A stretch of 23,606 bases of DNA from a virus (IMGVR_UViG_3300017963_002072:1-23606); one strand, 5' to 3'. Positions 2,580 to 18,120 are shown, counted from the stretch's first letter. Notes: a model not told the origin generated them from the sequence alone. Made by a program: numbers and translations.

Positions 2580-2993
2580 TCAATTTATTTTAGGATTTTT
2601 CAATAAACTTTTTTCTCTCAACCTTTTTAATTCACCATCAGTCAATGGTGGAATAAACTTTTCAACTATGTGTTTACCTTCAAACACATGTTCAAATCCA
2701 TCTTTGATTGCAAGATCTTTTACTTCATCACCTACAATACCTCTGATGATCTGAGATCTTACTGTTTTCAAATGCATAATTGCTTCATCCATCAGCTTCT
2801 TAGATACGATTGGATTTTCAGAAATCAATGGCTCAATCATTGGAACAGTTCTGATGTTTATGTATCCAACAATCCTTCCATCACTATCTTCTGCAATTAA
2901 CATATAGCCATCATCCGGAAGAAGAATGCCATGCTTCTTTGCAAGTTCCTGGATCTGTTCTTCATCTGTGTTTTTGTAAGTCCTGATTATCAT
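2580..2993 (-). CDS. Degenerate GNAT-fold N-acetyltransferase-like protein, 137 aa
   Basis: The N-terminus MIIRTYKNTDEEQIQELAKKHG is a typical GNAT beta1-alpha1 start. Next come a strand-turn-strand stretch (YMLIAEDSDGRIVGYINIRT) matching GNAT beta2-beta4, a helix, and VRSQIIRGIVGDEVKDLAIKDGFEHV, which resembles the beta5-alpha4 region ending in the familiar GF. The canonical acetyl-CoA pyrophosphate loop (Q/R-x-x-G-x-G/A) is not visible; PIVSKKLMDEAIMHL occupies its place. Catalytic activity is therefore doubtful. The start ATG 2991-2993 overlaps the preceding TGA stop (ATGA), indicating translational coupling. GNAT-like proteins embedded in the tail region are known in several podoviruses, where their role is mostly unknown; modification of a virion or host-surface component is possible. 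Confidence 0.7.
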   Translation of the reverse strand: MIIRTYKNTDEEQIQELAKKHGILLPDDGYMLIAEDSDGRIVGYINIRTVPMIEPLISENPIVSKKLMDEAIMHLKTVRSQIIRGIVGDEVKDLAIKDGFEHVFEGKHIVEKFIPPLTDGELKRLREKSLLKNPKIN

Positions 2994-3877: not shown

Positions 3878-6589
3878 TTATTTCCTTGATGTCATTTCTA
3901 AAATTGCTTCCGGATAGATCCCCCTGAAATATGCTCTGTATTGTCCACTAATTATTGTTGTTGAAGTAATATCATAAGCAAAACTGTATGGTGCACTCAG
4001 CAATGGTGCTGTGTAAACTATTTCATATGGTGGAATTGTTAATGGTGGAATTCCATAAGGATCCAAAACTCCTTTGTGATCACTATTTGAGATAAACAAC
4101 AATGAATCATATGCAAAGATCTCAACACGATTTCCATCCAGGTAAGTAACTGAATCAAGATCCAATAGATAAAAATCAATTGTTGTTTCTGTATTCACAA
4201 GATCCTTTGCCCAAACCTGATCACCATATAAATAATATCTCCAACCATCTGAATCAGTAGAATCATTCTGATATGGATATGTTGATGCACTTATACCTGC
4301 CTGTGATAAAGTCTGTTCTGTTGCAGCAGTTAATGGTAAAGTAAGTGAAGGTGGAAGATTAACATCCCAAGCACATTCTTTTGTTTTAGATATTCCATAA
4401 TTTTCATTGTGCATAAGCATTCTCGGAACAGATCCCAAATGATAAACTCTTAATCCTGGATAGAATGCTTGTCCTGGTGCACCAAAGAAAACTGAACTCC
4501 AACTGTTTGTAAGTGTGTTCCAATAGAACAGGTAAACAGCATCATAATAATCATACCATCCCCAAACGAATGCAAAGTATCCGGAAGTATAAAGATTATC
4601 ATTCAGCTTGAAGAAATTACTCCACCTGTAAATACCTTGTGCAACCTGTTGTCTGCCTCGTTGTCCAACATTAGTTAAAGTATCATTATCATAATATGGT
4701 TGTCCTGCAATCGGATTTCCTGTTACCAGGTTTGAATCACCTGCTGTTGCAACTTTATAATAGATCTCCTGTGCTAAACTGATTGATGCATTCCACCAAT
4801 AGGTTGTTGTATCCGGTGGAGATCCATCACCTGCACCAACAGGAATTTCATCACTAACCAGGTTGTAATTAGATCCACCATCAGTTGAAAAGTAAAATGC
4901 AAGTGTATCAACCAAATATGATTCAACCAGGATCTTCAAAAGATTTCCTGATAGTGTATATGTAGATCCATCCGGTTCTAATATGTTTATTGCTGCACCT
5001 GTTGGTAAGATTGAAAAACTGTTATCACTCTGATCTTCTGCTGCACCAAAAACATCAACCAATCTGATCCTTCCTTTTGATGTCAATACATCCGGAACAA
5101 TCCAATCATAAGTTGATTCACCTGTTGAATCAACCAGGATCCAGGAAGATCCTGCATTTGTTGAATAATAAATGTAAATAGAATCAACACCTGCTGCTGT
5201 CCAGGTAACTGTAACAGTATCTTCACCGGAAGTAAATGTTTCACCACCATTTGGATATGTAACTTCTAATTCAATTGATGCACTCAACCAACCTGAAATT
5301 GAAACAGATGAAGGATCATGTGATGTAGTGCTATCTTCATGCAATATTTCTGATGGAGTCCAATGAACAAAACAGGAATCACCAACTGCTTTTATTTGGA
5401 ATGGTGCATATCCGATTGTATTACTCCACAATGCTGTTGCAGGATTGCTTTCCATTCTTTTCCAGGATCCTGATCCTGGTGAATAACGATAGATCCTGCT
5501 TGATGTTGTGTTTGTATCAATTATATCACCTGCACTCATCCATAAAATTCCATCTTCACTTGCACTAATCATATTTATTGCAACTGTTGAATTTGTTAAT
5601 CCTGTGATTGTGGCTGCATCACCAATTTGAGTAATAACATCAGTATCAATATTGTATTTATATATCCTTGCACCAATCTTCTTAGGTGATTGAGCATATA
5701 CATACAATATCTTTTGTCCTGATCCATTTGTGTATCCTGTTATTCCACCTCTCCAGGAAAGTGAATCATCAATTAACTCTAAGAATGTTAATTGTCCTGT
5801 TGTGGATTCTCTTTTTGCTATGAATGATGAATCATAGATCCCTGATGAAACTGAAAAGGATCCCAAACCATAATGAGTATATACAAAGAAAACATCTTCA
5901 TCATCATCAAACTTGAAATTATCAACAGGTGATCCGGAATAACTTTTATAGCTTTCACTTCCCCAACTTGCAGATCCCCACTTAGTCTTTTGAAAAGATC
6001 CGGATACAGGGCAAAACATAGTGTCGTTTTGCATAAATAATCTTCCTGCATATCCATTGGTTCCTATTGTTGGTGCTGTTAATGCTGTTTCAGAAGATCC
6101 ATCCAATGGTGATCTATACCATATTTCAGATACTCCATTAGACCTCTGTGAAAATCTGAATAGTGAATCACCACGTATAATGTAATTAAAAGTGTTGTGT
6201 GTGAATGCAGCTTGAAAAGTTGATGCTTTGAATCTTGTAATTGAATCCTGTCCAGGAATCCAAATTGCTGCAAATTCACCAACTGTCGAAACTGCCTGTG
6301 TTGCAATTATTAAAGTATCACCATGAAAAACAGGTTTTGATATTCCTGTGCTTAAAAGATCTGTTGATGCAACACCATCATATTCAGGATAAGTCCAGGT
6401 AGTTGCAATTTCTTCAACCTGTGCAAAACTTATTCTGCTCATTAACCAGGCAAAAAGGATCACCAGGATCCACTTGTAAATTGATTTTGCTCGATCAGAT
6501 GTAATCATACCAGGTTCCCTATATCTGTAACATTCTTCATCCGGTTGTGTTGTTAAACATCCACAATATTTACAGATGTGTTCTTTCAT
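3878..6589 (-). CDS. Large signal-peptide beta-protein with Kre9/KNH-type Ig repeats (fibre/receptor-binding candidate), 903 aa
   Basis: The start ATG 6587-6589 directly follows the previous TAA and has AAGGAGATATTAA upstream. A second in-frame ATG (6506-6508, residue 28) also has an AGGGA 7 bases upstream and may be used. Residues 6-20 contain four cysteines (C6, C9, C11, C20; CKYCGC start). Residues 35-56 form a basic-hydrophobic signal sequence (KSIYKWILVILFAWLMSRIS) ending FA|Q. Residues ~60-430 contain repeated beta-blade-like segments resembling a propeller (DTLIIAT, DSLFRFS, GILWMSAGD, GSWKRME). Residues ~440-528 match a Kre9/KNH-like Ig domain (TYPNGGETFTSGEDTVTVTW, IYIYYSTNAGSSW, TYDWIVPD), and residues ~533-625 are a related, diverged copy (LAFYFSTDGGSNYNL). 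The rest is beta-rich and unassigned. A host-contacting or periplasm/surface-exported phage protein is inferred. Confidence 0.8.
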   Translation of the reverse strand: MKEHICKYCGCLTTQPDEECYRYREPGMITSDRAKSIYKWILVILFAWLMSRISFAQVEEIATTWTYPEYDGVASTDLLSTGISKPVFHGDTLIIATQAVSTVGEFAAIWIPGQDSITRFKASTFQAAFTHNTFNYIIRGDSLFRFSQRSNGVSEIWYRSPLDGSSETALTAPTIGTNGYAGRLFMQNDTMFCPVSGSFQKTKWGSASWGSESYKSYSGSPVDNFKFDDDEDVFFVYTHYGLGSFSVSSGIYDSSFIAKRESTTGQLTFLELIDDSLSWRGGITGYTNGSGQKILYVYAQSPKKIGARIYKYNIDTDVITQIGDAATITGLTNSTVAINMISASEDGILWMSAGDIIDTNTTSSRIYRYSPGSGSWKRMESNPATALWSNTIGYAPFQIKAVGDSCFVHWTPSEILHEDSTTSHDPSSVSISGWLSASIELEVTYPNGGETFTSGEDTVTVTWTAAGVDSIYIYYSTNAGSSWILVDSTGESTYDWIVPDVLTSKGRIRLVDVFGAAEDQSDNSFSILPTGAAINILEPDGSTYTLSGNLLKILVESYLVDTLAFYFSTDGGSNYNLVSDEIPVGAGDGSPPDTTTYWWNASISLAQEIYYKVATAGDSNLVTGNPIAGQPYYDNDTLTNVGQRGRQQVAQGIYRWSNFFKLNDNLYTSGYFAFVWGWYDYYDAVYLFYWNTLTNSWSSVFFGAPGQAFYPGLRVYHLGSVPRMLMHNENYGISKTKECAWDVNLPPSLTLPLTAATEQTLSQAGISASTYPYQNDSTDSDGWRYYLYGDQVWAKDLVNTETTIDFYLLDLDSVTYLDGNRVEIFAYDSLLFISNSDHKGVLDPYGIPPLTIPPYEIVYTAPLLSAPYSFAYDITSTTIISGQYRAYFRGIYPEAILEMTSRK

Positions 6590-7099
6590 TTAATATCTCC
6601 TTATCATTCTCCAAACATACTTCAATCCGGATGTTCCGGATGCCGGTCTTGTTACTATTACTTTATTTGGAGAAAGTATAGTATAAATGAATTGATCATT
6701 TGCTGTGATTGAAGTTCCACCACGTGCCTGGATCCAAAACAGATCTTCATATGCATTTAATGTGTCCACACCGGATACTGTAAATGTATCTGCTGTGAGT
6801 GTTGTTGTGAATGAATCAATCCCTGTTGCATAATTAGAGATCTTTAACACATAGTGCCCTGTTGGTGCAATCTCTGCATCAGTAACTAAGATGTGTTGTG
6901 TTGTATCAGTCCATACAATTAAAGCATAGATAAGAGAATCAATTTTCTCTTTATCTTCATTTAATATGGTGTATGGAACACGTGCACTTTGAGCATACAA
7001 TCTGAAATTATAATGTGTGGTTGAATCAATCGGTTCATCAAACACCTGTGCTGCTGTTGTTGCAGCAAAAAAGATCAGAAGCAAAAAAAGTTTTTTCAT
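6590..7099 (-). CDS. Secreted-type small protein in tail gene cluster, 169 aa
   Basis: ATG 7097-7099 follows GGAGAAATAAA, a strong ribosome site. The first 18 residues are a textbook Sec signal peptide: KK, then LFLLLIFFAATTAA, then a likely cut before QVFDEP. The mature part is beta-rich: YNFRLYAQSARVPY, HILVTDAEIAPTGHYVLKI, FTVSGVDTLNAYEDLFWIQA, ending VIVTRPASGTSGLKYVWRMI. It has no cysteines and no further membrane segment, so a soluble exported or surface protein is expected. It lies immediately upstream of the large signal-peptide gene (TAA directly abutting ATG), so the two are probably co-translated and may work as a pair. No family was recognised. Confidence 0.8.
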   Translation of the reverse strand: MKKLFLLLIFFAATTAAQVFDEPIDSTTHYNFRLYAQSARVPYTILNEDKEKIDSLIYALIVWTDTTQHILVTDAEIAPTGHYVLKISNYATGIDSFTTTLTADTFTVSGVDTLNAYEDLFWIQARGGTSITANDQFIYTILSPNKVIVTRPASGTSGLKYVWRMIRRY

Positions 7100-7121
7100 T
7101 TTATTTCTCCATTAGTTTTTG

Positions 7122-9665
7122 TTACCAACCTGAATCATAATTACCATAAACATCAGCGTAACCAATGAAAGCATCTTCATCAAAAGGAAATGCATATATA
7201 TCACCTTCGTTCATAAACCAAACCCTTCCACCAAGTCCGTTTCGATATACTTCCGGATGATGGTATCTTTCCTGGTTTTCCCAACCACGTGAATGCAACA
7301 GCAGTTCCGGAAACTCAACACCCTCTTTATCATCAACCAATGCAATTCTATATGCACCATATTTATCTAATACTGCATGTGCTGTTGTTTTGTCTGTGAT
7401 CTGATTCAATATATCTCTCACGTAACGATCACTAATAGGTTCAGCAATGTAACCTGTTGATGCTGCCATCTTCAAAACATCTTCATTCGATTGCCAATAT
7501 AAAGTGTTCCGGATTACCAGGATAGTGTTTTTAATTACACAACCATCACCAATTGCTGTTTCATACTTTTGCCCTGTATCCGGATCCAAAATAATTATTG
7601 CACCATCTTTAAGTGCAACAATACTATTATTTGATAGAACTGCAATGCCAACTATAACTTCACCCTTATATCTATCAACATCTAAAACTGTTTGTGCAGG
7701 AACAACATCATGCATATTTGCACCAAGTCCTGAGATCTGAGATCCGAAAAGTTTATTATCATATCTTCCATCATCTTTTATGTAGGATCCTGCTAACCAG
7801 GTAATTCCATTTAATATCACTCCCTGTATCCAATCTCTAACAATATTGAATGTTGGTTGGTAGCCAAGTTCAGTAAGCATTGAAGATCCAAGTTCAGTGT
7901 CTGCATCAACATATGGTGTGTCTGTTTCTTTCCAATTAAGTTCTTCCAATTCAAAATAATCTCCTGTGGCGATGGTTCCATTTTCTCTTGTGAGATCAAA
8001 ATAAAAAAATGTTGCTGATGATGCTCTGTTGGTAAAATCATCCCTAACTGTAATATTAACATCCTGTGATGCATAACTGGTTCCAATTGAAATTGATGGT
8101 AAGTATTGGATCTGCCCAACATCATTTATATCAAAATATCTTAATGCCAACTGTGCTTTCATTGCAACAGAGGCTTTTGCATTTATTGTTAGTGTGTATT
8201 TTCCACCTGCTTTAATCAATGGAGAAAATTGCAGCATATCATAATTCAGATTTAACCAATCATTCCCATTGGCTGTGGTTCTGATTGCAAAGTTTGATGC
8301 CGCTACAACTGCAACTGTTGGTGGAGGAAAGTGTCCACCAAAAGCGCCCCAAGATCCAACTGCATTTGTATCTGCACTACTCGCAGCATTTGATTCAACG
8401 TGTTGATCTGCTGCTGCTGCAACTGATTCTGTTTGGATCCATCCATTTTCCAACAAAGTCCAATCCGGTGAATTGATGAATGCACCACCATCAACTTCAT
8501 TTGGGAGTGAAACTGCTTTTTCTTCTATCAGATAGTAATCATCCAGGCTCACACTAAAATAAAATTTAACTGCTGTGATTCTTCTGTTGAAAGATCCTAA
8601 CCGGATCTGTCCTTTAACTATAAACTTGTATGGATCCTGAGTTACTTCTTCATGGTCAACCACCATAATTTCATCCGTTCCATCCAAGACAACTGTCATT
8701 CTGAATCCATATGTTCCTGCAATGAAATTGCCGGTATCGTGATCAACTATGATTCTGTAATTATCTTCATTATCATTGAATGCCGTATAAGGTTGTAGCA
8801 CTACTTTGTTCGTTACTGCATAAATAAATTCATCACCAACTATTGTCGGGTCAACTGCCGTAAAAGAATAATCAGCTAATTGCAATGTTTGTTTTACAAA
8901 CTGGATCCCATATCCCAACCTTCCTTCTTTTCCACCAAAACCAATTCTCATTTTACTCAGGATCCTATGAAATGAAATTTCTTTTCTCAATACATCATAG
9001 TTCTGGATCTGATAAGATAATGGAATATAGTTTCTCATAAGGACCACAATATCATCAACATCCCATTGCGGATCCCAATCACTCAACCAACAATCGGTGT
9101 TGGTTCCGTTTTCTTCCGTTCTAATAACAGCAGCAGGAACACGTGTATCTTTAGTTACGTTAAGAATTGTCCATTGAGTAAGATTGCCAAAATAACCTTC
9201 AAACTGAATCTTGTTTTTATATGTAGCATCCGGTGCAACTGTGATGTTAGTAATGAAAGATTCATTCAACCATTGCCATGCATCTAACCAATAGGTTCCA
9301 TTCCAATAAGGTCTGATCCACACGTTTGCTGATCTGTATTTATAACTATTCAGTTTAGATCCGGAAACTGTTGGTGCAACAACTTCACTCTTTTCAACCA
9401 ATACAGTAATTTCCGTTCCCTGCCCTGCGGTTCGTTCAAAGAAGTTATCAAAGGAAACATACTCAGTATTCTCTAATCTTGAATAATCATCATCAACAGG
9501 TTTTGGATACCTCAGTTCATATCCTTCACGTAAAGTAAGTGTTCCTGGTTTATGATGTGTATCCATATTTTTTATCCGCAACAGATTCGATTGCCTGTCC
9601 GGTTGATTAGAATTTCTTTCCAATCCTTTGAAGTCTAAAAATTTTGTTGGAATTAAATTTGCCAT
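7122..9665 (-). CDS. Tail hub/nozzle-like protein with inserted carbohydrate-binding-like jelly roll, 847 aa
   Basis: ATG 9663-9665 is preceded by AGGTGGATAA and abuts the upstream TAA. The N-terminus (FKGLERNSNQPDRQSN, then LLRIKNMD and PGTLTLREGYEL) resembles the opening of phage stabilisation/nozzle proteins (P22 gp10-like, T7 gp12-like), which start with a list of variables and a G-x-L-x-x-R-x-G-Y/W motif. Residues ~640-847 look like propeller blades (NSIVALKDGAIIILDPDTGQ, NTLYWQSNEDVLKMAASTGY, YRIALVDDKEG, GGRVWFMNEGDIYAFPF). Residues ~400-580 look like an inserted CBM4/9-type jelly roll (GGKYTLTINAKASVAMKAQL, then ALRYFD, and SATFFYFDLTRENGT). Position after two adaptor-type genes fits a tail-tube terminal hub. 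Family assignment is from pattern only. Confidence 0.75.
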   Translation of the reverse strand: MANLIPTKFLDFKGLERNSNQPDRQSNLLRIKNMDTHHKPGTLTLREGYELRYPKPVDDDYSRLENTEYVSFDNFFERTAGQGTEITVLVEKSEVVAPTVSGSKLNSYKYRSANVWIRPYWNGTYWLDAWQWLNESFITNITVAPDATYKNKIQFEGYFGNLTQWTILNVTKDTRVPAAVIRTEENGTNTDCWLSDWDPQWDVDDIVVLMRNYIPLSYQIQNYDVLRKEISFHRILSKMRIGFGGKEGRLGYGIQFVKQTLQLADYSFTAVDPTIVGDEFIYAVTNKVVLQPYTAFNDNEDNYRIIVDHDTGNFIAGTYGFRMTVVLDGTDEIMVVDHEEVTQDPYKFIVKGQIRLGSFNRRITAVKFYFSVSLDDYYLIEEKAVSLPNEVDGGAFINSPDWTLLENGWIQTESVAAAADQHVESNAASSADTNAVGSWGAFGGHFPPPTVAVVAASNFAIRTTANGNDWLNLNYDMLQFSPLIKAGGKYTLTINAKASVAMKAQLALRYFDINDVGQIQYLPSISIGTSYASQDVNITVRDDFTNRASSATFFYFDLTRENGTIATGDYFELEELNWKETDTPYVDADTELGSSMLTELGYQPTFNIVRDWIQGVILNGITWLAGSYIKDDGRYDNKLFGSQISGLGANMHDVVPAQTVLDVDRYKGEVIVGIAVLSNNSIVALKDGAIIILDPDTGQKYETAIGDGCVIKNTILVIRNTLYWQSNEDVLKMAASTGYIAEPISDRYVRDILNQITDKTTAHAVLDKYGAYRIALVDDKEGVEFPELLLHSRGWENQERYHHPEVYRNGLGGRVWFMNEGDIYAFPFDEDAFIGYADVYGNYDSGW

Positions 9666-10358
9666 TTATCCACCTGCATCTTCTTGGAAATCATCCTTCT
9701 TATAAATTCCAACTGCGATCTCTGCAATAGCATCAATGTGATGTTCTGAGAAAGGAACATCATAAGTTCCACCACTAACTAAAATTGCACCTGTAATTGG
9801 ATTTTTATTATTCTGGATATAGTTGAGAGTGAATGTGTATCCACCAGGATCCGCAAGATCATTTGGAAATCCATATATGTAAGGATGTGATAAGATCATT
9901 CCTGGTGTGCTGCTGTTTACACGTGGTGGAGAATAAAACGGATCTGATTCAGCAATACAATCTGCAAGTTTTGATGGATCCCAAACTTCGATTAATCCAC
10001 CACCACCCTGTTTAACTGAATCCAGGATCTCAAAAATATCATTATAAACTGTTGATATATCCACACGTGAAACTGCGGATGCATAAGTAAGTGTGATGGA
10101 TCTAAATTTGAATAGTTCAGGAAACATATTAAGAAACTTGTTTTTATGGCTCATAGATCCAGGTGATTCATTCTCAGGTTGTGCAGCATTCCAGGCACCA
10201 TTAAAAAAGATCTGTCCTGCTCTGTGCACATAACTTTCAATTTCAGCAACAGATCTGATCAACTGTCCTGCTGTGATCACACCTGCTGATTCTGTAATCG
10301 GATCCTGGATCCTTTGCATAAATGCAATTGCTAATCTGTTAAGTTTTGGTGTTGCCAT
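9666..10358 (-). CDS. Connector/tail adaptor-type protein, 230 aa
   Basis: ATG 10356-10358 has only a weak ribosome site (GAAAG), eight bases after the previous stop. The N-terminus is helical (LNRLAIAFMQRIQDPITESA), and the middle contains SMSHKNKFLNMFPELFKFRS and a proline-rich loop. The C-terminus FSEHHIDAIAEIAVGIYKKD matches the helix usually seen at the end of phage head-to-tail adaptor proteins, where a His-x-x-I/L-hydrophobic-A-hydrophobic pattern faces the portal. It lies between another adaptor-like gene and the nozzle-like gene, which is where podoviruses keep ring proteins joining portal and tail. A role as second ring or tail connector is inferred; sequence evidence is modest. Confidence 0.7.
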   Translation of the reverse strand: MATPKLNRLAIAFMQRIQDPITESAGVITAGQLIRSVAEIESYVHRAGQIFFNGAWNAAQPENESPGSMSHKNKFLNMFPELFKFRSITLTYASAVSRVDISTVYNDIFEILDSVKQGGGGLIEVWDPSKLADCIAESDPFYSPPRVNSSTPGMILSHPYIYGFPNDLADPGGYTFTLNYIQNNKNPITGAILVSGGTYDVPFSEHHIDAIAEIAVGIYKKDDFQEDAGG

Positions 10359-10365
10359 CTTTCAT

Positions 10366-11148
10366 TTACCATTTTGCTGTTGGAACAATTGGTTTACTTG
10401 TAACATTGTGCAGCTTTCCATATCTATCATCAGAAATCTTTTCATACAACTGATAGAGTGCTGCTTTACTTGGATGATCAATTGGAAGTAAATAATAAAT
10501 AGCATATGCTTCCAATGCAGCATCCATTCCCTGTGGTGTTTCAGGTTCAACAGTTGCAGATGGTTCCAATGTTGGTGAATGCAGATAAGTTTGCAACACA
10601 ACCTGATCACCTGTATCTGTTGGTGCACCATAAAATTCTAATTGATCATTCCGGAAGATCACAAATAATGGTTGAGATATTGTCTGTTCCATTCTAATTA
10701 TATCCATCTGATCATCTGTTTTCCAATATAGCTTATACCAATCGGTTGGTGTTCTCATTGAATAGATCTTTTTCACAACCTTGTGAGCAGCTTTAACAGT
10801 TCCGGTTCCGGTTCCTGCACCTGTTGCTGTAAATACAACACCAATATTATTTGATGCTGCACCAACTGCTGTAAAGTCTGTGTTCCCAACTGATTGGATC
10901 TGATATAGTGTTCCTGTAACAAAAGATCCTGCGGTAATTGCAGATCCGGAAACTGCTACAATATCATATGCTTCCTGATCTTCAATCGTGGTGAGAGTGA
11001 TCTGCTGCTTAATTAGATCAAACCTGGTAGCAATATCTTGCTGTGCTCGGAATAAGGCAAAGAAGATCTGCGGTGAACTGATTGATTTCAGGTGAAGATC
11101 TTCAATGCCCTTCTTAACTAACTGTAATAAGTCTAATGATCTGCTCAT
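10366..11148 (-). CDS. Head-to-tail adaptor-like protein with inserted phage surface-type beta domain, 260 aa
   Basis: ATG 11146-11148 overlaps the preceding TGA (ATGA), so it is translationally coupled; the ribosome site (AAAGAG) is weak. The flanks look like a gp4/gp6-type adaptor: N-terminal helices (LDLLQLVKKGIEDLHL, PQIFFALFRAQQDIATRFDL), a beta pair interrupted by an insertion (TLTTIEDQEAYDI, then KVVKKIYSMRTPTDWYKLYW), RNDQLEFYGAPTDTGDQVVL, and a C-terminal helix with AALEAYAIYYLLPIDHPSK. Residues ~68-120 are an inserted module: AITAGSFVTGTLYQIQSVGN, then TDFTAVGAASN and FTATGAGTGTGT. This repeat is widespread in fibre and surface proteins of environmental phages. It was probably captured as a decoration. 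A role at the portal-tail junction is inferred. Confidence 0.75.
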   Translation of the reverse strand: MSRSLDLLQLVKKGIEDLHLKSISSPQIFFALFRAQQDIATRFDLIKQQITLTTIEDQEAYDIVAVSGSAITAGSFVTGTLYQIQSVGNTDFTAVGAASNNIGVVFTATGAGTGTGTVKAAHKVVKKIYSMRTPTDWYKLYWKTDDQMDIIRMEQTISQPLFVIFRNDQLEFYGAPTDTGDQVVLQTYLHSPTLEPSATVEPETPQGMDAALEAYAIYYLLPIDHPSKAALYQLYEKISDDRYGKLHNVTSKPIVPTAKW

Positions 11149-11921
11149 TTAGTGCTCTTTGGTTTAACTTTGGATAGTTGAATTATGTTCTCGATCAACT
11201 TATCCTTTTTAGTCAAACCTTTGAGCAGATTCTTTTGATATTTTTCATCCTTGCTTTTAACAGCAGGTAAGTTCAACAATATTGCCTGTAACTGATCAGT
11301 TCCCAATGGTTCCAAAGTTTTCTTTGTGTATTTGGTTGGTGCATTAACTTTGGTATCGAAATTCAATTCTTTCTCTTTGAGATCTTTCAGTTCCGGTGTT
11401 CCCTTTTCGGCTTTATCAAGTGCTGCTTCTTCATCAGCTTTTGCTTTTGGTCTTTCTTCATCTTCTTCTGTTTCTTTCATTGATTCAGCCGGTTCAAGAT
11501 CCACACCTTGCGGAACATAATCTTTTGGAATCTGATCTTCAGTCATCATTGCACCTGGCACATAGGATGTATCTTTTTCAACTTCAACATCTTGTATCTC
11601 AATTCCCTGTTCAATTGCTTCCAATACATTATCGAAAGTTGTTTTGGTAACTTTCCCAACAGTTCCACGTATTTTTTCAAATTCTTCTACATCCTTCATT
11701 GTTGTTCCTGGTGGCACCATATCAATAGAAATTCCTTGTGGAAGTTTTTCACCTGGTGCAAGTTTGAATTTATCAGGTTGAACTCTCATTGCTTGTAAAG
11801 CATGGCGTAATTGCCATTCAGACGTTTTCCAGGATCCATCAGCTTGTTTCTCCTGGATACTAATCAAAGTAATCTTACTCTGTTTCCTGGTAAGTTGATC
11901 AAATATTATTTGCTGTCGCAT
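11145..11921 (-). CDS. Charged, lysine/glutamate-rich virion-cluster protein, 258 aa
   Basis: ATG 11919-11921 is preceded by CAGGAGTAATATCC. The first ~95 residues look folded (LTRKQSKITLISIQEKQADG, WKTSEWQLRHALQAMRVQPD), with a long Pro-containing middle. Residues ~140-195 are low-complexity and strongly charged (MKETEEDEERPKAKADEEAA, LKDLKEKELN). The tail is helical and basic (AVKSKDEKYQKNLLKGLTKK) and ends KPKSTK. Position directly after the capsid and decoration genes, behind a terminator-like hairpin, corresponds to where head-completion or capsid-associated proteins lie in related gene orders. I recognise no family. The acidic/basic mix with a C-terminal LxGLTKKDKLIE-type helix resembles SAP/HeH-like C-terminal helices seen in some phage head proteins, but that is tentative. 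Confidence 0.75.
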   Translation of the reverse strand: MRQQIIFDQLTRKQSKITLISIQEKQADGSWKTSEWQLRHALQAMRVQPDKFKLAPGEKLPQGISIDMVPPGTTMKDVEEFEKIRGTVGKVTKTTFDNVLEAIEQGIEIQDVEVEKDTSYVPGAMMTEDQIPKDYVPQGVDLEPAESMKETEEDEERPKAKADEEAALDKAEKGTPELKDLKEKELNFDTKVNAPTKYTKKTLEPLGTDQLQAILLNLPAVKSKDEKYQKNLLKGLTKKDKLIENIIQLSKVKPKSTK

Positions 11922-11939
11922 TGGATATTACTCCTGTTT

Positions 11940-11979
11940 TTGTTTTTAATTAAAGGTGGTGATCTTACTCACCACCATT
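11940..11979 (-). terminator. Hairpin terminator/attenuator after capsid-decoration genes
   Basis: GGTGGTGA (11955-11962) and TCACCACC (11969-11976) form a perfect 8-bp stem with a 6-base loop. Read on the minus strand the hairpin is followed by TTTAATTAAAAAC. It lies between the putative decoration gene and the 258-residue gene. It probably reduces read-through from the highly expressed capsid genes to the tail genes; the T-tract is short, so partial termination is more likely than complete. Confidence 0.55.
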
Positions 11980-11997
11980 GAATTTTGCTTTCACCTA

Positions 11998-12405
11998 TTA
12001 ACTGAATGTTGCAGCTTTCCAGGTGGTTGCAGCATCATGCATATACAGTTTATCAGCTTGAAGATCTACAACCATACTTCCTAATGGAAGTGAGTTATAA
12101 TTAGATGCATTTGAACTGAATGCTGTTGAACTGTTATATACACCAAGAAACCAATCTCCATCTTCACCTGAGATCCATACTCTTTGACGCATCAAAGCAG
12201 CATAAGCAGCAGCAATGCCAAATTTCCGATCCCAACCGGCACCATCAACAACCTGATCATTTCTTTCCAATGATCCACCTGCTGCCATTGCAAATGATAT
12301 TCCTGATGCTGCTGCACCAAGTGCTTGATCAACCAGGAATAACACACCGGCAATTAGGATAAATAAGAGATTGATTAACGGAAATGATTTCAAAACTTGT
12401 TTCAT
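11998..12405 (-). CDS. Small putative capsid decoration protein with N-terminal signal/membrane segment, 135 aa
   Basis: The start is ATG 12403-12405. A TTG-initiated frame from 12420 begins at the ribosome site itself (TTGGAGATAAAAGAAATG) and should not be used. Residues 1-30 are basic then strongly hydrophobic (MKQVLKSFPLINLLFILIAG, VLFLVDQALGA), with candidate cleavage around residues 31-34. The mature part starts Gly/Ala-rich, then contains LERNDQVVDGAGWDRKFGIA, a repeated beta-like WISGEDGDWFLGVY, and ends in LPLGSMVVDLQADKLYMHDA and TTWKA. Small size, position directly after the major capsid gene and high-expression context suggest head decoration or head fibre. The hydrophobic leader is unusual for such a protein and mirrors the one on the neighbouring capsid protein. 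Confidence 0.8.
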   Translation of the reverse strand: MKQVLKSFPLINLLFILIAGVLFLVDQALGAAASGISFAMAAGGSLERNDQVVDGAGWDRKFGIAAAYAALMRQRVWISGEDGDWFLGVYNSSTAFSSNASNYNSLPLGSMVVDLQADKLYMHDAATTWKAATFS

Positions 12406-12418
12406 TTCTTTTATCTCC
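12406..12418 (-). promoter_or_regulatory. Ribosome binding site fixing the decoration-protein start
   Basis: GGAG (complement of 12415-12418) lies nine bases before ATG 12403-12405. The same arrangement precedes the capsid gene. It shows that the apparent upstream residues M-E-I-K-E are the ribosome site read as protein. Confidence 0.8.
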
Positions 12419-12436
12419 AATAATTGTTTAATAAGT

Positions 12437-12458
12437 GTGGATCATATTTCAGATCCAC
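12437..12458 (-). other. Hairpin between capsid and decoration genes
   Basis: GTGGATC (12437-12443) pairs with GATCCAC (12452-12458), a 7-bp stem with an 8-base loop. It lies just after the capsid stop codon and before the decoration-protein ribosome site. There is no T-run directly after it, so an mRNA stabiliser or processing element or weak attenuator is more likely than a full terminator. Confidence 0.4.
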
Positions 12459-12475
12459 GTTAATTATCTGCCTGG

Positions 12476-13849
12476 TTAAATAGCAGTAAGTTGATCTTCT
12501 GCATAAAACCAATATACAAGAGAACTGTTGTTCTCATAGAATGCACCGGCACCATTTCCAAAATAGTTATCATCATCAATTATATCACATCTTTCAAAAC
12601 CGGTGATCATATCAGCAGCATCACCAAGAAACTGCTCATAGTCTGCTGTTTCAGAACTGAATGAAAGTTCAGATCCATAACCTGCGGTGATTGCACCTGC
12701 ACCACAAATGATTGCACATTTCCTGTTTCCTGCATCACGTGGTGTAGCCATGTATGTATCTAAACCATAATTAACAGTTCCCCAATCTGAATCATAACCT
12801 GTATCACCTGAGATCCTTGCACTCGGCATGGTATCATCAACAATCATATAGGCACCTTCAACAAAGGTTCCTTCTAATTGTCCGGTGAAGATTATGTTCT
12901 CATTACCTCTTACACCTGCATCTTTCAGGTAAGTGAGATATTCAGGATCCTGCTTTAACTGCCATGCAAGTGCAGGTGGAATGAAGATCAGATAAAGAAG
13001 TTTGCCTTGAATCATGATTGGTGTTAATTTGTGATAGTTGGCTAAGTAAACCATGTTCTTGATTTTAGCCAAACTAAAATGTTTAGTTGGAACATCACTC
13101 AATGTTGCAAGTGCGTTTGATGCAGCAGTTTCATATGCAGCATTGAACAGATTACTGAATGGCACCTTACCATATCCTGCAACATAGTTGTTAGGATGTG
13201 ATTTAATGCTGAATCCAATTCCATCAACAGGATCAGTTAAGTTGTTGCTGTATCCACCAAGTATTGCATGGTATGGAAACTGTGCCAACCTTCTGCTAAA
13301 CCAATCTTGAAGATCATTTTTACCACGTTCCATAAGTGCCATCTGCACCTGTGGTTTCTTCAAAACTGCTTTTGACATTTTGTTGTCCTGAATTTCAACA
13401 GCATGTCTAACCTGGTTTATTGCAACTTTCTTTGTAAGGATCTTTCGTTTTTCCTCAGATCCTCTAAGTGCTGCAAGTCCAACTTTACCTTTACCGGTCA
13501 ATGGAACTAATACAGGTATATCCATATAGATTCCACCTTCACGTTCAAAATCTTTCACCACGTGGATCAGATTTTTAGGTGTTGGTAAACTCATTGCACC
13601 CGCATACGTTCCTGCTTTCCGATATTTAGCAACATCAATTATATCAGTAAGTTGTGCCCACTTTCCATATCTCCACACCAGCTTTTCCATTTGCTTCGCA
13701 AGTCCTCTGCGAAAAATTTGCATCTGGTCAGTCCAAGTTCCGCCAACTGTTGCAAGTGTGATTGATGTTGCTGAAACGATTGTTGCATCAAGCACAAATG
13801 CAATCGCTGCACTCACTACCATCAGCAACATAAAATATGATTTTCTCAT
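12476..13849 (-). CDS. Major capsid protein, N4-gp56-like, with N-terminal signal sequence, 457 aa
   Basis: The start is ATG 13847-13849, with TTGGAG nine bases upstream; the longer TTG frame to 13864 merely translates that ribosome site. Residues ~105-150 carry the hallmark of the N4-gp56/DUF4043 capsid family: GGIYMDIPVLVPLTGKGKVG, then AALRGSEEKRKIL and VAINQVRHAVEIQ (basic-strand, L-x-G, D/N-Q-x-R-H-A-V). A helix with ERGKNDLQDWFSRRLAQFPY follows, as in the family. The position after an acidic scaffold and portal supports the call. Remarkably, residues 1-27 form a signal-like leader (MRKSYFMLLMVVSAAIAFVL, then DATIVSA) with a plausible V-S-A cut after residue 27. This is not usual for HK97-fold capsid proteins, which are made and assembled in the cytoplasm. 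Confidence 0.85.
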   Translation of the reverse strand: MRKSYFMLLMVVSAAIAFVLDATIVSATSITLATVGGTWTDQMQIFRRGLAKQMEKLVWRYGKWAQLTDIIDVAKYRKAGTYAGAMSLPTPKNLIHVVKDFEREGGIYMDIPVLVPLTGKGKVGLAALRGSEEKRKILTKKVAINQVRHAVEIQDNKMSKAVLKKPQVQMALMERGKNDLQDWFSRRLAQFPYHAILGGYSNNLTDPVDGIGFSIKSHPNNYVAGYGKVPFSNLFNAAYETAASNALATLSDVPTKHFSLAKIKNMVYLANYHKLTPIMIQGKLLYLIFIPPALAWQLKQDPEYLTYLKDAGVRGNENIIFTGQLEGTFVEGAYMIVDDTMPSARISGDTGYDSDWGTVNYGLDTYMATPRDAGNRKCAIICGAGAITAGYGSELSFSSETADYEQFLGDAADMITGFERCDIIDDDNYFGNGAGAFYENNSSLVYWFYAEDQLTAI

Positions 13850-13862
13850 TTCAGTTATCTCC
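13850..13862 (-). promoter_or_regulatory. Ribosome binding site fixing the capsid start
   Basis: GGAG (complement of 13859-13862) sits nine bases before ATG 13847-13849, within TTGGAGATAACTGAAATG. It shows that the hydrophobic leader of the capsid protein is translated. No comparable site precedes the next in-frame ATG (residue 43), which would give a leaderless protein. Confidence 0.8.
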
Positions 13863-13913
13863 AAATATTTGTTAAAGATTTTTAATTACTTCGGGCAATC
13901 AACCTTTTCAAAT

Positions 13914-15395
13914 CTAACTCGTTTTTCTTCCGGATTTTCCTGTTGCACCTGATGCAATACTATTTTTAATCCGGTCTAATTTTTCCTGAATCTGTTCAGG
14001 TGTAAGATCATCATTATCAAAATCTTCCACTTCGATTTCTACTTTATCTCTGTGTTCCTTACCAGGTAAGTTTGAAGTTGAAGGATCTTCCATATTATTA
14101 AGTCCTGTTTTGAATCCCTGCTGTCTTGCTTTGTGTTCTTTGGCTGCGATAATAGCATCCATATTGATTTCCATCAGGTTATTATAAACTTCCTTCGGTT
14201 TAACAATTGGAATTACATCATCCATAAATGTTAGAACATCCGGATTAGGTTTATTAGTATCACCTTCCTGGAAGATCACGTTCTTCCACAAATATTCATT
14301 ATACAGTTGATCATCAAGATCTAAGGATTCAATTCCTATATCCTTCGGTGTAAGGTTGTAACGTGCAAGTTTTGCTTTGAACAATGCAACATCTGTTCTG
14401 ATAGTGCTCTCAGCAATTGATTCCCAATTCTGAGTGATATGAACATAACGATCATATTCATTATCAATTTCACCTGTGGTTTGTTTATAGAAAGCATCAT
14501 ATTCCTGATACTGCCTTCTGCTCAAACCTTCTTCAAACTCAGATAGTGCATCATCATCATCAAATGCTTCATCCGGAAATTCCGGAAATTTAGCTTTCAT
14601 TTTATTGATGATCATCTTCTGCTTTTGTTTGGTAGCTTCCTCAATGTATTTAGGATCACTCACAACCTTTTGATCAGGTTTCCAATCTGAATCAAATGGA
14701 GATCTGATTGTTTTGATATACAACTGAGCATTGATGTAGTTCTTCAATGATTTCTGATCCATTTCAGATCCTTTAATGCCATCAAGTATATCCTGGATTG
14801 CGTTGATCTTTTTATTTAATACATCAGGCGGATCATCCTTCCATTGATCTCTAAAGTTTTGCACCTGCCTGTTGATATAGTTCTCTGTGATTTTGAATGC
14901 TTTGGTTCCGGTCTTATCCTCACCAGGTTTCTGATCAGCCATCTTACCGGTCTGATCATCATCAGCATCCTTTTTATCATCAGGTTTATCATCAGTTTTT
15001 TTGTCGGTCTGATCACCAGGTTTATCTTCTTCATCTTCACCTGGTTTATCTTCTTCATCTTTGAGATCAGTTTCAACCTTACCATCATCATCATCCGTAT
15101 CAGTTTTATCATCAGTATCTTTTTTATCTTTTTCATCTTTAATCAATACAGTTTCCAAAGTCGTTTCTTCATCACGTGTTTTCATCCAATCAAGCAGCTT
15201 ATCACCATCAACATCTTCACGATCAAATAATTGATCAATTGTTTCAAGTTCCATTTCTGCAAGTTTGGATGTTGGATCCAATTCAAGTTCTTCATCTTCC
15301 TTAATGGTTGGATCCGGATCCGGTGGATCTCCACCTTCTCCACCATCTTTCTGGAAGAAGATATTTGGTATTACCCAATTTAATAAGTTGTTCAT
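13914..15395 (-). CDS. Scaffolding protein, acidic, 493 aa
   Basis: ATG 15393-15395 begins MNNLLNWVIPNIFFQKDGGE, with AAGAAAGGTGTAAA upstream; stop is TAG. Residues ~20-165 are extremely acidic and low-complexity, including D-D-D-D-G and repeated EDKPGE/EDKPGD units (encoded by two 19-base copies at 15019-15037 and 15043-15061). Residues ~165-450 are helical and charged (YINRQVQNFRDQWKDDPPDV, KQKQKMIINKMKAKFPEFPD). The C-terminus is basic (GATGKSGRKTS), as expected for a scaffold C-terminal coat-binding helix. Location between portal and major capsid protein, acidic composition and helical content are characteristic of phage scaffolds. It may also contain or be processed by a protease, but I see no catalytic motif. 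Confidence 0.8.
   Translation of the reverse strand: MNNLLNWVIPNIFFQKDGGEGGDPPDPDPTIKEDEELELDPTSKLAEMELETIDQLFDREDVDGDKLLDWMKTRDEETTLETVLIKDEKDKKDTDDKTDTDDDDGKVETDLKDEEDKPGEDEEDKPGDQTDKKTDDKPDDKKDADDDQTGKMADQKPGEDKTGTKAFKITENYINRQVQNFRDQWKDDPPDVLNKKINAIQDILDGIKGSEMDQKSLKNYINAQLYIKTIRSPFDSDWKPDQKVVSDPKYIEEATKQKQKMIINKMKAKFPEFPDEAFDDDDALSEFEEGLSRRQYQEYDAFYKQTTGEIDNEYDRYVHITQNWESIAESTIRTDVALFKAKLARYNLTPKDIGIESLDLDDQLYNEYLWKNVIFQEGDTNKPNPDVLTFMDDVIPIVKPKEVYNNLMEINMDAIIAAKEHKARQQGFKTGLNNMEDPSTSNLPGKEHRDKVEIEVEDFDNDDLTPEQIQEKLDRIKNSIASGATGKSGRKTS
15019..15061. repeat. Short tandem repeat within the scaffold gene
   Basis: Two 19-base copies, GGTTTATCTTCTTCATCTT at 15019-15037 and 15043-15061, with a 24-base period. 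They encode a doubled acidic EDKPG unit in frame, so the repeat can change copy number without breaking the scaffold frame. Confidence 0.7.
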
Positions 15396-15440
15396 TTTAC
15401 ACCTTTCTTCTTAGGGAATAGGTTTATTAAGTTTCCTGGA

Positions 15441-15956
15441 TTACCAGGTATTATCTAACTCTGAAACACGTCTGTGCTCTCTCAATGGTATTGTTACAAC
15501 AGTAACAGCACTTGCATTTCCACCTGTATTAGTAATGGTGAAATAATATGCCGGTGCACTCCAACTGTTCAATGTAAGTGTTGAGAGAGTATCATCCACA
15601 CCCTGATTAGCAGCAGCAACTTGTGCAGTATCTAACGGATACGTGTAAGATCCACCATTGTAAACACCCCAAAGGATGATTTCAAGATTAGCAGTTGTTG
15701 CCGGTGCACCATCAGTTGCCTGATCATGATAAACAGTAATTGGATGTGTAGCGGATATTCCACCATCAAAATCATCTAATGAGAACTGTCTTGTGGTGAG
15801 TGTCTGAGCACTATCAATATCATAGATCATCAATAGTGTTCTTGTATCCGTTCCATTCCAATTCTCTGTTGCATCTGAATCAGTTGCAGACAATTGAGCA
15901 AACATTGTTGAACTGAAAAGCATCAGCATCAACAATGGAAGAATGAATCGTTTCAT
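15441..15956 (-). CDS. Secreted-type small protein between portal and scaffold, 171 aa
   Basis: ATG 15954-15956 is preceded by AAAAGGAGATACCAA, a strong ribosome site. Residues 1-20 are a clear Sec signal peptide (MKRF, then ILPLLMLMLF, ending MFA|Q). The mature part is Thr/Ser/Ala-rich and beta-like (NWNGTDTRTLLMIYDIDSAQ, TANLEIILWGVYNGGSYTY, APAYYFTITNTGGNASAVTV), ending with a charged tail IPLREHRRVSELDNTW. There is no cysteine or second membrane span. It resembles small surface or decoration proteins with an immunoglobulin- or jelly-roll-like fold, but no family was recognised. Its position inside the head-assembly block, between portal and scaffold, suggests a head role despite the export signal. 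The stop codon sits in the loop of a small CCTGG/CCAGG hairpin. Confidence 0.8.
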   Translation of the reverse strand: MKRFILPLLMLMLFSSTMFAQLSATDSDATENWNGTDTRTLLMIYDIDSAQTLTTRQFSLDDFDGGISATHPITVYHDQATDGAPATTANLEIILWGVYNGGSYTYPLDTAQVAAANQGVDDTLSTLTLNSWSAPAYYFTITNTGGNASAVTVVTIPLREHRRVSELDNTW

Positions 15957-15972
15957 TTGGTATCTCCTTTTA

Positions 15973-18120
15973 TTATTGGTTAATTAAGGCACCACGTTGT
16001 GATTGCCCTGCACCACGTGGATTGTTATTTAGAAAATTCTTTTGGAATTGATTATTAACTATCTGATCAGCCATATTATAATTTTCGATATCAGATTTAT
16101 CCATCTGCTGAATAGTTTGTTTTATGTTAAAGTAATTCTGTGCTGCTGTTTGTTGCCTTTGCATCTGTTCTTCAAACTGCATCATTTCAACTTGCTTTGC
16201 AAGATCACCTTCAATAGTCTGAATGTGTGCTAACCATTTATGCTTGTTAATCAATGGTGAAGTTTCAACAACAATCTTAGGATCTACATATGCAGGATTG
16301 AATTGCATCAACCAATTTGCCATTTCAATATTTCTCTGGAATTCTCTATCCTGTGCTTGTCTGCCATATGGTGTTTTAGAGATCCTAACATGATACTTTC
16401 CATAACTAACATCATTCATTACCCTGCCAAGATAGAATTGATTTAATGGCAACCACAATGGATCTTCATCATCACGTAAAATCATAATTGCTCTCGGCAT
16501 GATCAGGAATCTTTGTCCAAGTGATATTGCATTCTTAGCAACCATCACAAGTGATGCCTGTGCATTCTCTGAGATCCATTCCTGCATAACATTTGCCTGT
16601 TCAACTCTGTTCTCAAATAAAATACCTGATTCTTTGCTGCTTTCCTGCCTACCTCTGAAATTAGGTGAAGATCCGGAAATAAGATTAATATCTTCTTTCT
16701 CATTCTCTGCTTCTACTCTTAATCCTTCCGGATATGGTGCAGGTTTAATTTCCTGAATTCTTTTTTCTGCAAGTGCACCATCCCTTACTTTCTTCAATCC
16801 ACCAATTTCATGGTTTTCAAAATCTTCTTCATGTCCTGCAACAGCATTTTCTTCACCAAGATAACCACCATGTGCTGCTCTCATAATATAAGTTAGAATT
16901 GTATTCCTGCGTAAGTTGTAAGAAGAAACAGGATCCACAATGTGATCCATAATAGATTTTGTTTCTAAGATCTCTGGATGAAAATCGAAACATAAAACAG
17001 GAACATATTTGAATTGTTTATTTTGAAATTTTTGCATTCCATCATGCAATACCAGGTTCATTGCAGGAACAACAGATGTTTGCCATATGATCTCACTCCA
17101 TTCCTGTGTAACCTTTGGCTCAATGTATTGCTCTCTGATCATTCCAAGTTTTTCACGATCAAACCATCTGGATGAAAAGCGATCATATTTTTCTGATTTA
17201 ACTTCTTCACTCACATCACGTTTCTCACCTGTTGCAAGATCTTCAATGTTCATTGAAGGAAGCATTCTCTTTTCATACCAATCAATTACTTTGAATCTCC
17301 CATCACCATTATACCAGGTTCCGGAAAATCCATATCTAAGATTATCAACATTAGAATCATAACCTGCTTTTCTTCCACCATATTGGATTGATGCATTCAG
17401 AAATCTTTCAGCCCAAGTGATCAACATCTGTTTCATTCTACCCTTCTTAATTGTTGATTCACCTGCAATCATTAAACCTTTCTCATATACTTCATCCCTG
17501 AGATCCGGTTTTTTCTTACAGAACAAATTTATAATTTCTTCCACGTCATACCATCCACCATCAGATATGAATCTCATGTCGGATGTATCTCTCCTTTGCC
17601 AATTAGTATCAAATTTAATTCTTAATGGATCATACCAGGAAATGTTCACCATTCCTTCATCATCTTTTTGGTGATCATAACCTGTTTTCAACCAACCAAT
17701 CCTTCCAACAATTGCATACAGAAATGCAATAGCAAATTCATAAACAATATCATTTGCCTGGTATAGATAGTGATCCATCAGTTGCGATTGCAATTGAGAT
17801 CCTGTATGATCATCCTGAGTAACACCGGTTATATCTAAACCAGGAATGTTCATTTTGAAATTGCCAATTATGGAAAGCACGATTGGAAGGAAAAGATTCC
17901 ATTCAAAATCCGGTCTGTTTTCAACAGCAAGTTTCTTTAGATCTGCGGATGAATAGATGTGTCCTGCAAGTCTGAAAAAGTTCTGTAAGATCTCTCTGTG
18001 GAATAGCTGAAAATCACTTGCAAGTTTCATCTCAGCAGTTCCGATTCGGGCAACTGCCTCTACATCTTCATATTTGGATCCTGAAACATAACCGTATTGG
18101 TTAAGTTGTCCTTCGGGCAT
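15973..18120 (-). CDS. Portal protein, P22-like, 715 aa
   Basis: ATG 18118-18120 is preceded by AAGGAAGGAATTATC. Length (715) and order after the terminase match the large P22-type portals (~725 residues). The N-terminal part has FFRLAGHIYSSADLKKLAVE, FLPIVLSIIGNFKMNIPGLD (the crown/wing I-x-N-x-x-x-x-x-P motif common to this group), FAIAFLYAIVGRIGWLKTGY, and ISWYDPLRIKFDTNW (acidic/aromatic portal strand). A long stem region, RIQEIKPAPYPEGLRVEAEN, is followed by SGSSPNFRGRQESSKESG, a region like the P22 G-x-G-S/T conserved stretch. The C-terminus is a Q/N-rich helical barrel-like tail (MQRQQTAAQNYFNIKQTIQQ). It forms the dodecameric ring for DNA entry and exit. A small ORF overlaps its first ~60 bases. 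Confidence 0.85.
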   Translation of the reverse strand: MPEGQLNQYGYVSGSKYEDVEAVARIGTAEMKLASDFQLFHREILQNFFRLAGHIYSSADLKKLAVENRPDFEWNLFLPIVLSIIGNFKMNIPGLDITGVTQDDHTGSQLQSQLMDHYLYQANDIVYEFAIAFLYAIVGRIGWLKTGYDHQKDDEGMVNISWYDPLRIKFDTNWQRRDTSDMRFISDGGWYDVEEIINLFCKKKPDLRDEVYEKGLMIAGESTIKKGRMKQMLITWAERFLNASIQYGGRKAGYDSNVDNLRYGFSGTWYNGDGRFKVIDWYEKRMLPSMNIEDLATGEKRDVSEEVKSEKYDRFSSRWFDREKLGMIREQYIEPKVTQEWSEIIWQTSVVPAMNLVLHDGMQKFQNKQFKYVPVLCFDFHPEILETKSIMDHIVDPVSSYNLRRNTILTYIMRAAHGGYLGEENAVAGHEEDFENHEIGGLKKVRDGALAEKRIQEIKPAPYPEGLRVEAENEKEDINLISGSSPNFRGRQESSKESGILFENRVEQANVMQEWISENAQASLVMVAKNAISLGQRFLIMPRAIMILRDDEDPLWLPLNQFYLGRVMNDVSYGKYHVRISKTPYGRQAQDREFQRNIEMANWLMQFNPAYVDPKIVVETSPLINKHKWLAHIQTIEGDLAKQVEMMQFEEQMQRQQTAAQNYFNIKQTIQQMDKSDIENYNMADQIVNNQFQKNFLNNNPRGAGQSQRGALINQ

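What the first reader, a model, noticed from the sequence alone, without database searches (positions are those of the whole stretch)
3878..15956. Five signal-sequence proteins inside one virion operon
Seen: besides the capsid protein, the decoration candidate (11998-12405), the protein between portal and scaffold (15441-15956), the 169-residue protein (6590-7099) and the 903-residue protein (3878-6589) all begin with N-terminal basic residues plus hydrophobic core, and three end in A|Q. Known: tail fibres and head proteins usually lack Sec signals; lysis proteins have them. Inference: this set may be a coordinated membrane- or periplasm-linked assembly or surface-display programme, which I have not seen described.
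Basis: partly seen in the sequence, partly recalled or inferred. Interest (0 to 1): 0.75.

Follow-up and report, generated by a model that had tools for sequence, protein, structure and literature searches.

The report
Phage capsid carrying a signal-like leader
In a group of uncultivated phages that probably infect Ignavibacteria, the major capsid protein and several neighbouring late proteins begin with export-signal-like leaders; the non-capsid ones look like ordinary exported proteins, while the capsid leader is a separate, unexplained kind that may dock growing heads on the cell membrane.

Summary
Five genes in this late operon start with a basic-plus-hydrophobic leader: N-terminal 11-residue hydropathy 2.67-3.25 against at most 1.54 for the other 20 genes. 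The three A|Q sites are as stated. The five are not one programme. (1) The portal-scaffold protein ("P0"), the 169-aa protein and the 903-aa protein are textbook "Q-rule" Sec/SPI substrates. Across six related phage lineages all 16 non-capsid leaders I assembled end in [AGS]|Q, and P0 keeps its leader in every lineage. (2) The capsid leader is an extension placed in front of the normal capsid N-terminus. It is present in six lineages, absent from about 30 distant homologues and from a nearer relative, and has an A|Q site in only one of six. It evolves like a targeting peptide: 21-33% identity against 43-77% for the body. (3) The decoration leader exists only in this phage; five homologues lack it. 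The host is probably an Ignavibacteriales bacterium. Capsid proteins with signal peptides have been reported once, in Porphyromonas prophages (PMC10367356). No evidence shows periplasmic assembly. Most likely: ordinary exported late proteins plus a membrane-docking capsid propeptide.

The parts
12476..13849 (-). Major capsid protein, 457 aa, PF13252 / phrog_334
   Evidence: Pfam E 1e-11, PHROG E 2.3e-22; alignments
13748..13849 (-). Capsid leader: residues 1-34 before the canonical N-terminus (MRKSYFMLLMVVSAAIAFVLDATIVSATSITLAT|VGG)
   Evidence: Hydropathy; homologues without leader start at GG/TNF; leader 21-33% vs body 43-77% identity
11998..12405 (-). Decoration-protein candidate, 135 aa, with window-specific leader
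   Evidence: Homologous to leaderless 88-100 aa proteins in L100, L092, L009, and same-place leaderless proteins in L105, L108
12307..12405 (-). Decoration leader, about residues 1-33
   Evidence: KD11 3.25, the highest N-terminal value in the window; no A|Q site
15441..15956 (-). P0, 171 aa, protein between portal and scaffold, Q-rule signal peptide
   Evidence: Leader and [AGS]|Q in six phage lineages; similar protein in host contig L150
15897..15956 (-). P0 signal peptide MKRFILPLLMLMLFSSTMFA|Q
6590..7099 (-). 169-aa protein with Q-rule signal peptide
   Evidence: 51% identical, leader-bearing homologue in L091/L089
7049..7099 (-). 169-aa signal peptide MKKLFLLLIFFAATTAA|Q
   Evidence: its DNA collects 33 of 133 short matches to Ignavibacteria genomes
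3878..6589 (-). 903-aa Kelch-like / Ig-like protein with internal Q-rule signal sequence
   Evidence: Kelch_6 weak; residues about 427-590 match 66 of 100 Ignavibacteria genomes; positional homologue L091 801 aa with SFG|QT
6422..6589 (-). Cys-rich extension plus signal sequence of the 903-aa protein, residues 1-56, ISFA|QVE
13914..15395 (-). Scaffold candidate, no strong leader
   Evidence: Position between P0 and capsid gene, acidic; KD11 1.54
15973..18120 (-). Portal protein, no leader
   Evidence: P22_portal E 1.6e-51
18413..20068 (-). Large terminase subunit, no leader
   Evidence: phrog_979 E 3.2e-51

Best explanation
The five leaders are two different things. (A) P0, the 169-aa protein and the 903-aa protein are exported through the host's Sec/signal-peptidase-I route. 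Cleavage exposes glutamine, which hosts that follow the Q-rule turn into pyroglutamate. They would act in the periplasm or on the surface of the infected cell, or be added to virions after lysis. (B) The capsid leader is a membrane-targeting propeptide placed in front of an otherwise normal HK97-type capsid protein. It brings newly made capsid protein to the inner membrane, where heads assemble (T4 heads are known to start on the membrane), and is then removed or left outside the shell. The window phage has put a similar leader on its decoration protein. Shown here: the leaders, their conservation pattern, the Q-rule split, and the extension in front of the canonical N-terminus. Inferred: export of class A, membrane docking of class B, and the host.
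For: All 16 non-capsid leaders assembled across six lineages end in [AGS]|Q, against 1 of 7 for capsid and decoration (about 7e-5 by a hand Fisher calculation, selection caveat below). P0 leader in all six phage lineages. Capsid leader in six lineages, missing in L150 and in about 30 distant homologues. The leader drifts much faster than the body, as targeting peptides do. Basic residues (+2 to +5) lie 25-45 residues after the capsid leader core but not after class A leaders. Class A also covers a spike whose pectate-lyase match starts at residue 41 (L105) and an outer-membrane barrel (L098). Host link: the same phage clade in an Ignavibacteriales MAG and a capsid relative on a MAG contig with a TonB receptor gene. 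Ignavibacterium album has a 77% Q-value (PMC5837995). T4 membrane assembly: PMC9958956.
Against: The capsid leader has basic N-in flanks like a real signal peptide, and in L009 it even has A|Q, which would favour export rather than docking. No maturation protease was found to remove it. The portal, the docking part in T4, has no N-terminal membrane segment here. No virion proteomics exists. The class A list left out lysis-type membrane proteins, so the 16 of 16 is not from a blind set. The docking step is analogy only.
Confidence: 0.45

Rival explanations
1. The capsid leader is a cleaved propeptide with a purely internal role, like the removable N-terminal segments of other HK97-type capsids: it delays or guides assembly and a phage or host protease removes it. 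The membrane has no part in it.
For: PMC10367356 proposes cleavage by the prohead protease for Porphyromonas phage capsids with signal peptides; the leader sits where other capsids carry removable segments (gp23 of T4 loses an N-terminal region, PMC9958956); fast drift.
Against: No protease gene recognised in the window, though the record is a fragment; a strongly hydrophobic core is not what coiled delta domains look like (established knowledge); the scaffold is a separate gene.
Confidence: 0.25
2. The capsid protein is truly exported by Sec like the class A proteins, in whole or in part, giving periplasmic capsid protein that acts as decoy or block, or even periplasmic assembly.
For: Basic n-region, hydrophobic core, and A|Q in L009; four short matches to host genomes fall on the capsid leader.
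Against: Portal, terminase, tail and window scaffold genes have no leader and packaging needs cytoplasmic DNA; 5 of 6 capsid leaders break the Q-rule that all class A leaders keep; a basic segment follows the leader.
Confidence: 0.12
3. The capsid leader is not translated; the real start is internal and the leader is an annotation effect.
For: Homologues start at the GG/TNF position.
Against: A Shine-Dalgarno-like site lies directly before the leader ATG in the window and in L009, L100 and L105, with weaker ones elsewhere; the frame is open and hydrophobic in all six lineages; no nearby internal ATG in L105.
Confidence: 0.04
4. All five are virion parts whose leaders stay on in the particle, for example lining the inside of the shell or anchoring a lipid layer.
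For: They lie in one morphogenesis operon; capsid leader kept in six lineages.
Against: Class A leaders carry cleavage sites; the capsid leader drifts much faster than the body; decoration leader absent from five homologues.
Confidence: 0.1

Closest known systems
Signal-peptide-bearing major capsid proteins of Porphyromonas gingivalis 'Nixviridae' prophages (PMC10367356)
   Same: Capsid proteins with predicted signal peptides and separate Q-rule phage proteins in one phage group
   Different: Temperate phages of Bacteroidota; authors assume cleavage by a prohead protease; here the capsid is the PF13252 type with a P22-like portal and no protease was found. Capsid homology between the two was not tested
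Bacteroidetes Q-rule Sec/SPI substrates (PMC5837995, PMC10653852)
   Same: P0, 169-aa, 903-aa and spike leaders: basic start, hydrophobic core, A/G/S then Q at +1; Ignavibacterium album is reported with a high Q-value too
   Different: These are phage late genes; the capsid and decoration leaders do not follow the rule in 6 of 7 cases
T4 head assembly on the inner membrane via portal gp20, gp40 and YidC (PMC9958956)
   Same: Idea of heads built on the membrane and then released after cleavage
   Different: In T4 the portal and a chaperone do the docking; here the hydrophobic segment is on the capsid protein itself
N4 gp56-type capsid family PF13252 (e.g. Acidovorax phage AP1, Pseudomonas phage KPP25)
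   Same: Capsid body, gene order portal-scaffold-capsid-small structural protein
   Different: The members seen outside this group carry no leader, and the genes between portal and scaffold in AP1 and ctwe8250 have no signal sequence

Membership tests
PF13252 / N4 gp56 major capsid family | Profile match over the body of the protein | tested here: met
   E 1e-11, residues 90-421; phrog_334 E 2.3e-22
Leaderless form usual in PF13252 (start at the N-arm, M-x-TNF or GG) | No N-terminal extension before the N-arm (a usual trait, not a defining one) | tested here: not met
   34-residue extension in the window and extensions in five further lineages
Q-rule Sec/SPI substrates (P0, 169-aa, 903-aa) | Basic n-region, hydrophobic core, [AGS]|Q site | tested here: met
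Q-rule Sec/SPI substrates (capsid and decoration protein) | [AGS]|Q site after the hydrophobic core | tested here: not met
   Absent in both window leaders; present in 1 of 7 overall, the L009 capsid
Q-rule Sec/SPI substrates (all) | Host follows the Q-rule | tested here: inconclusive
   Literature value for Ignavibacterium album 77%; own sample of the MAG too small, 2 usable proteins
Q-rule Sec/SPI substrates (all) | Cleavage and pyroglutamate shown | not testable with these tools
   Needs mass spectrometry
Capsid with propeptide removed by a prohead protease | Protease gene in the head operon | tested here: inconclusive
   None matched in the window, but the record is a 23.6-kb fragment
Membrane-docked head assembly (T4 type) | Head precursor bound to the inner membrane | not testable with these tools
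   Needs imaging or fractionation
Membrane-docked head assembly (T4 type) | gp40-like membrane helper of the portal | not tested
   No gp40-like gene was looked for; the portal itself has no N-terminal leader

The most novel reading that the evidence does not exclude
In this phage group the capsid protein itself carries a built-in membrane-targeting leader, so the shell is built from subunits delivered to the inner membrane, while the neighbouring P0 and spike-like proteins are exported ahead of lysis and meet the virion only outside the cytoplasm.
Probability: 0.2. Interest if true: 0.85.

Novelty: new variant of a known kind. Interest (0 to 1): 0.58.

Why it matters
Tailed-phage heads are thought to be built from cytoplasmic subunits. 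A conserved, fast-evolving targeting-like leader on the main shell protein in six lineages, together with exported spike-like proteins in the same operon, gives a testable case for membrane-guided head assembly or for late proteins that act outside the cytoplasm before lysis. It also provides a usable mark (Q at +1) for phages of Ignavibacteria, for which the literature search found no described phage.

Tried and rejected
Single-protein scans of viral contigs with capsid, terminase, portal and tail proteins found nothing; the profile queries A1, A2 and A5 did. The idea that the decoration leader was copied from the capsid gene: their 5' DNA is similar (score 75, all-pair mean 37), but capsid-P0 (76) and capsid-169 (70) are as similar, so it may only reflect shared signal-like coding bias; left open. 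Scaffold N-terminus as a membrane helix: a short amphipathic start also occurs in the leaderless relatives AP1 and KPP25; only the L092 clade has a long hydrophobic start. Structure predictions: 169-aa protein too poor (pLDDT 36); P0 a low-confidence beta-sandwich (pLDDT 56) with only weak, mixed matches. A search of Ignavibacteria genomes with the window DNA gave no clear CRISPR spacer. A Q-rule count on the MAG failed for lack of data. General feature of phages of Bacteroidota: rejected, since the structural proteins of Cellulophaga phi14:2 and phi38:1 lack leaders, apart from one likely misplaced start.

Full report
OBSERVATION. The window is a 23,606-base viral record with a minus-strand late operon: small and large terminase, P22-like portal, P0, scaffold, capsid, decoration, tail genes, the 847-aa protein, the 169-aa and 903-aa proteins, and internal virion candidates. 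Their N-terminal hydropathy maxima (2.67-3.25) are separated from the other 20 genes (at most 1.54), and all five starts have ribosome sites.

RELATIVES. Capsid profile searches found five further lineages in viral contigs: L089-L095 without L093 (65-68% capsid identity), L093/L100-L101 (67%), L009 with L010 and L011 (43%), L105 (44%) and L108 (42%). A seventh, more distant copy (35%) lies on a contig of an Ignavibacteriales MAG. The order portal, P0, scaffold, capsid, decoration is shared where it could be read.

PATTERN BY GENE. P0: leader with [AGS]|Q in all six phage lineages; a 139-aa FA|Q protein sits upstream of the scaffold in L150. Capsid: leader in all six, absent in L150, whose protein starts at the G of the GG where the leader ends, and absent in about 30 more distant homologues that begin M-x-TNFA or similar. 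Decoration: leader in the window only; L100, L092 and L009 have leaderless homologues, and L105 and L108 have leaderless proteins at the same place. 169-aa: present and leader-bearing in the window and in L091/L089. 903-aa: L091 has an 801-aa protein at that place with the same FRGIYP motif near its C-terminus and SFG|Q. L009 and L105 have large beta-helix proteins in the tail region with TEA|Q and TNA|Q. In L105 the pectate-lyase match starts at residue 41, leaving little room for a head-binding part.

TWO CLASSES. The 16 non-capsid leaders I assembled all end in [AGS]|Q; of the seven capsid or decoration leaders only the L009 capsid does. Class A was assembled by me and leaves out lysis-type membrane proteins, so the contrast is strong but not blind; the L105 141-aa protein, with a lipobox-like IHC|Q, was also left out. 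In the stretch 25-45 residues after the leader core, capsid proteins carry +2 to +5 charge (the decoration protein 0), class A proteins -2 to +1. Capsid leaders drift quickly (21-33% identity) beside a body of 43-77%, while keeping hydropathy and place. That is how targeting sequences behave and not how shell structure behaves.

HOST. A terminase profile found the L089-L095 clade in an Ignavibacteriales MAG contig (L113). The seventh capsid relative lies in the same MAG on a contig with a TonB-dependent receptor and a BsuBI/PstI restriction system. The Ig-like part of the 903-aa protein matches 66 of 100 Ignavibacteria genomes. Of 133 short DNA matches to 391 genomes of that class, 50 fall on the five leader segments, which are 3% of the query; in the loci inspected, some of these lie at the 5' ends of genes for proteins with hydrophobic starts. 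A smaller control class gave few matches. Binning and short matches are indirect, so the host is probable, not proven. The Q-rule is reported for Bacteroidetes and, at 77%, for Ignavibacterium album.

MECHANISM. Class A proteins most simply leave the cytoplasm by Sec and are cut by SPI. What they do outside is open: surface or periplasmic action before lysis, polysaccharide cutting by the spike-like ones, or joining virions after lysis. Class B is harder. Export of the capsid protein would defeat packaging. The reading I prefer is a targeting propeptide that brings capsid protein to the membrane. T4 shows that heads can start on the membrane and be let go after cleavage (PMC9958956). This step is analogy. 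A plain assembly propeptide is the main rival, and is close to what PMC10367356 proposed for Porphyromonas phage capsids.

WHAT IS KNOWN. Literature searches found one report of capsid signal peptides and none of spikes with Sec signals. The library lacks most subscription papers, so absence is weak. Two Cellulophaga phages with annotated structural proteins (confirmed by mass spectrometry in phi14:2, by similarity in phi38:1) have no leaders on them, apart from phi38:1 gp69, whose hydrophobic start is probably a misplaced start codon.

VERDICT. The finding is real and more interesting for the capsid leader than for the set of five. It is a variant of something reported once before, with an unproven function.

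Noticed in passing
window 6422-6589 (-): The 903-aa protein has a 39-residue Cys-rich stretch (CKYCGC...C) before its signal core, unusual for an exported protein; an internal Met28 could shorten it.
   Followed up: no
window 2580-2993 (-); similar genes in L098 6262-6624, L108 14852-15214, L100 4937-5293, L099 19297-19653: A small GNAT-like acetyltransferase gene lies at the same place of the late operon in the lineages; role unknown.
   Followed up: no
L092 8589-9953 and equivalents in L089-L095: The scaffold of this clade starts with a long hydrophobic segment (MFNLWVKPLFVLLSFFGLAPLFVIEDD), KD11 2.58, unlike the other lineages.
   Followed up: partly
L150 (G011 contig 131) 1898-5411: Scaffold and leaderless capsid genes of this phage family next to a restriction system and a TonB receptor in an Ignavibacteriales MAG; looks like a prophage remnant.
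   Followed up: partly
L098 17787-18380 (-): Phage-encoded Q-rule protein with an outer-membrane beta-barrel match (PF13505, below its cut-off), possibly a surface-altering protein.
   Followed up: partly
L105 2026-2433 and 10447-11345: Several further small Q-rule or lipobox-like proteins of unknown function in the late region of this lineage.
   Followed up: no
L114 (Calditrichota MAG) 9812-16130: A phage with a 56%-identical terminase but apparently different portal and leaderless head genes: packaging and head genes may have been exchanged.
   Followed up: partly
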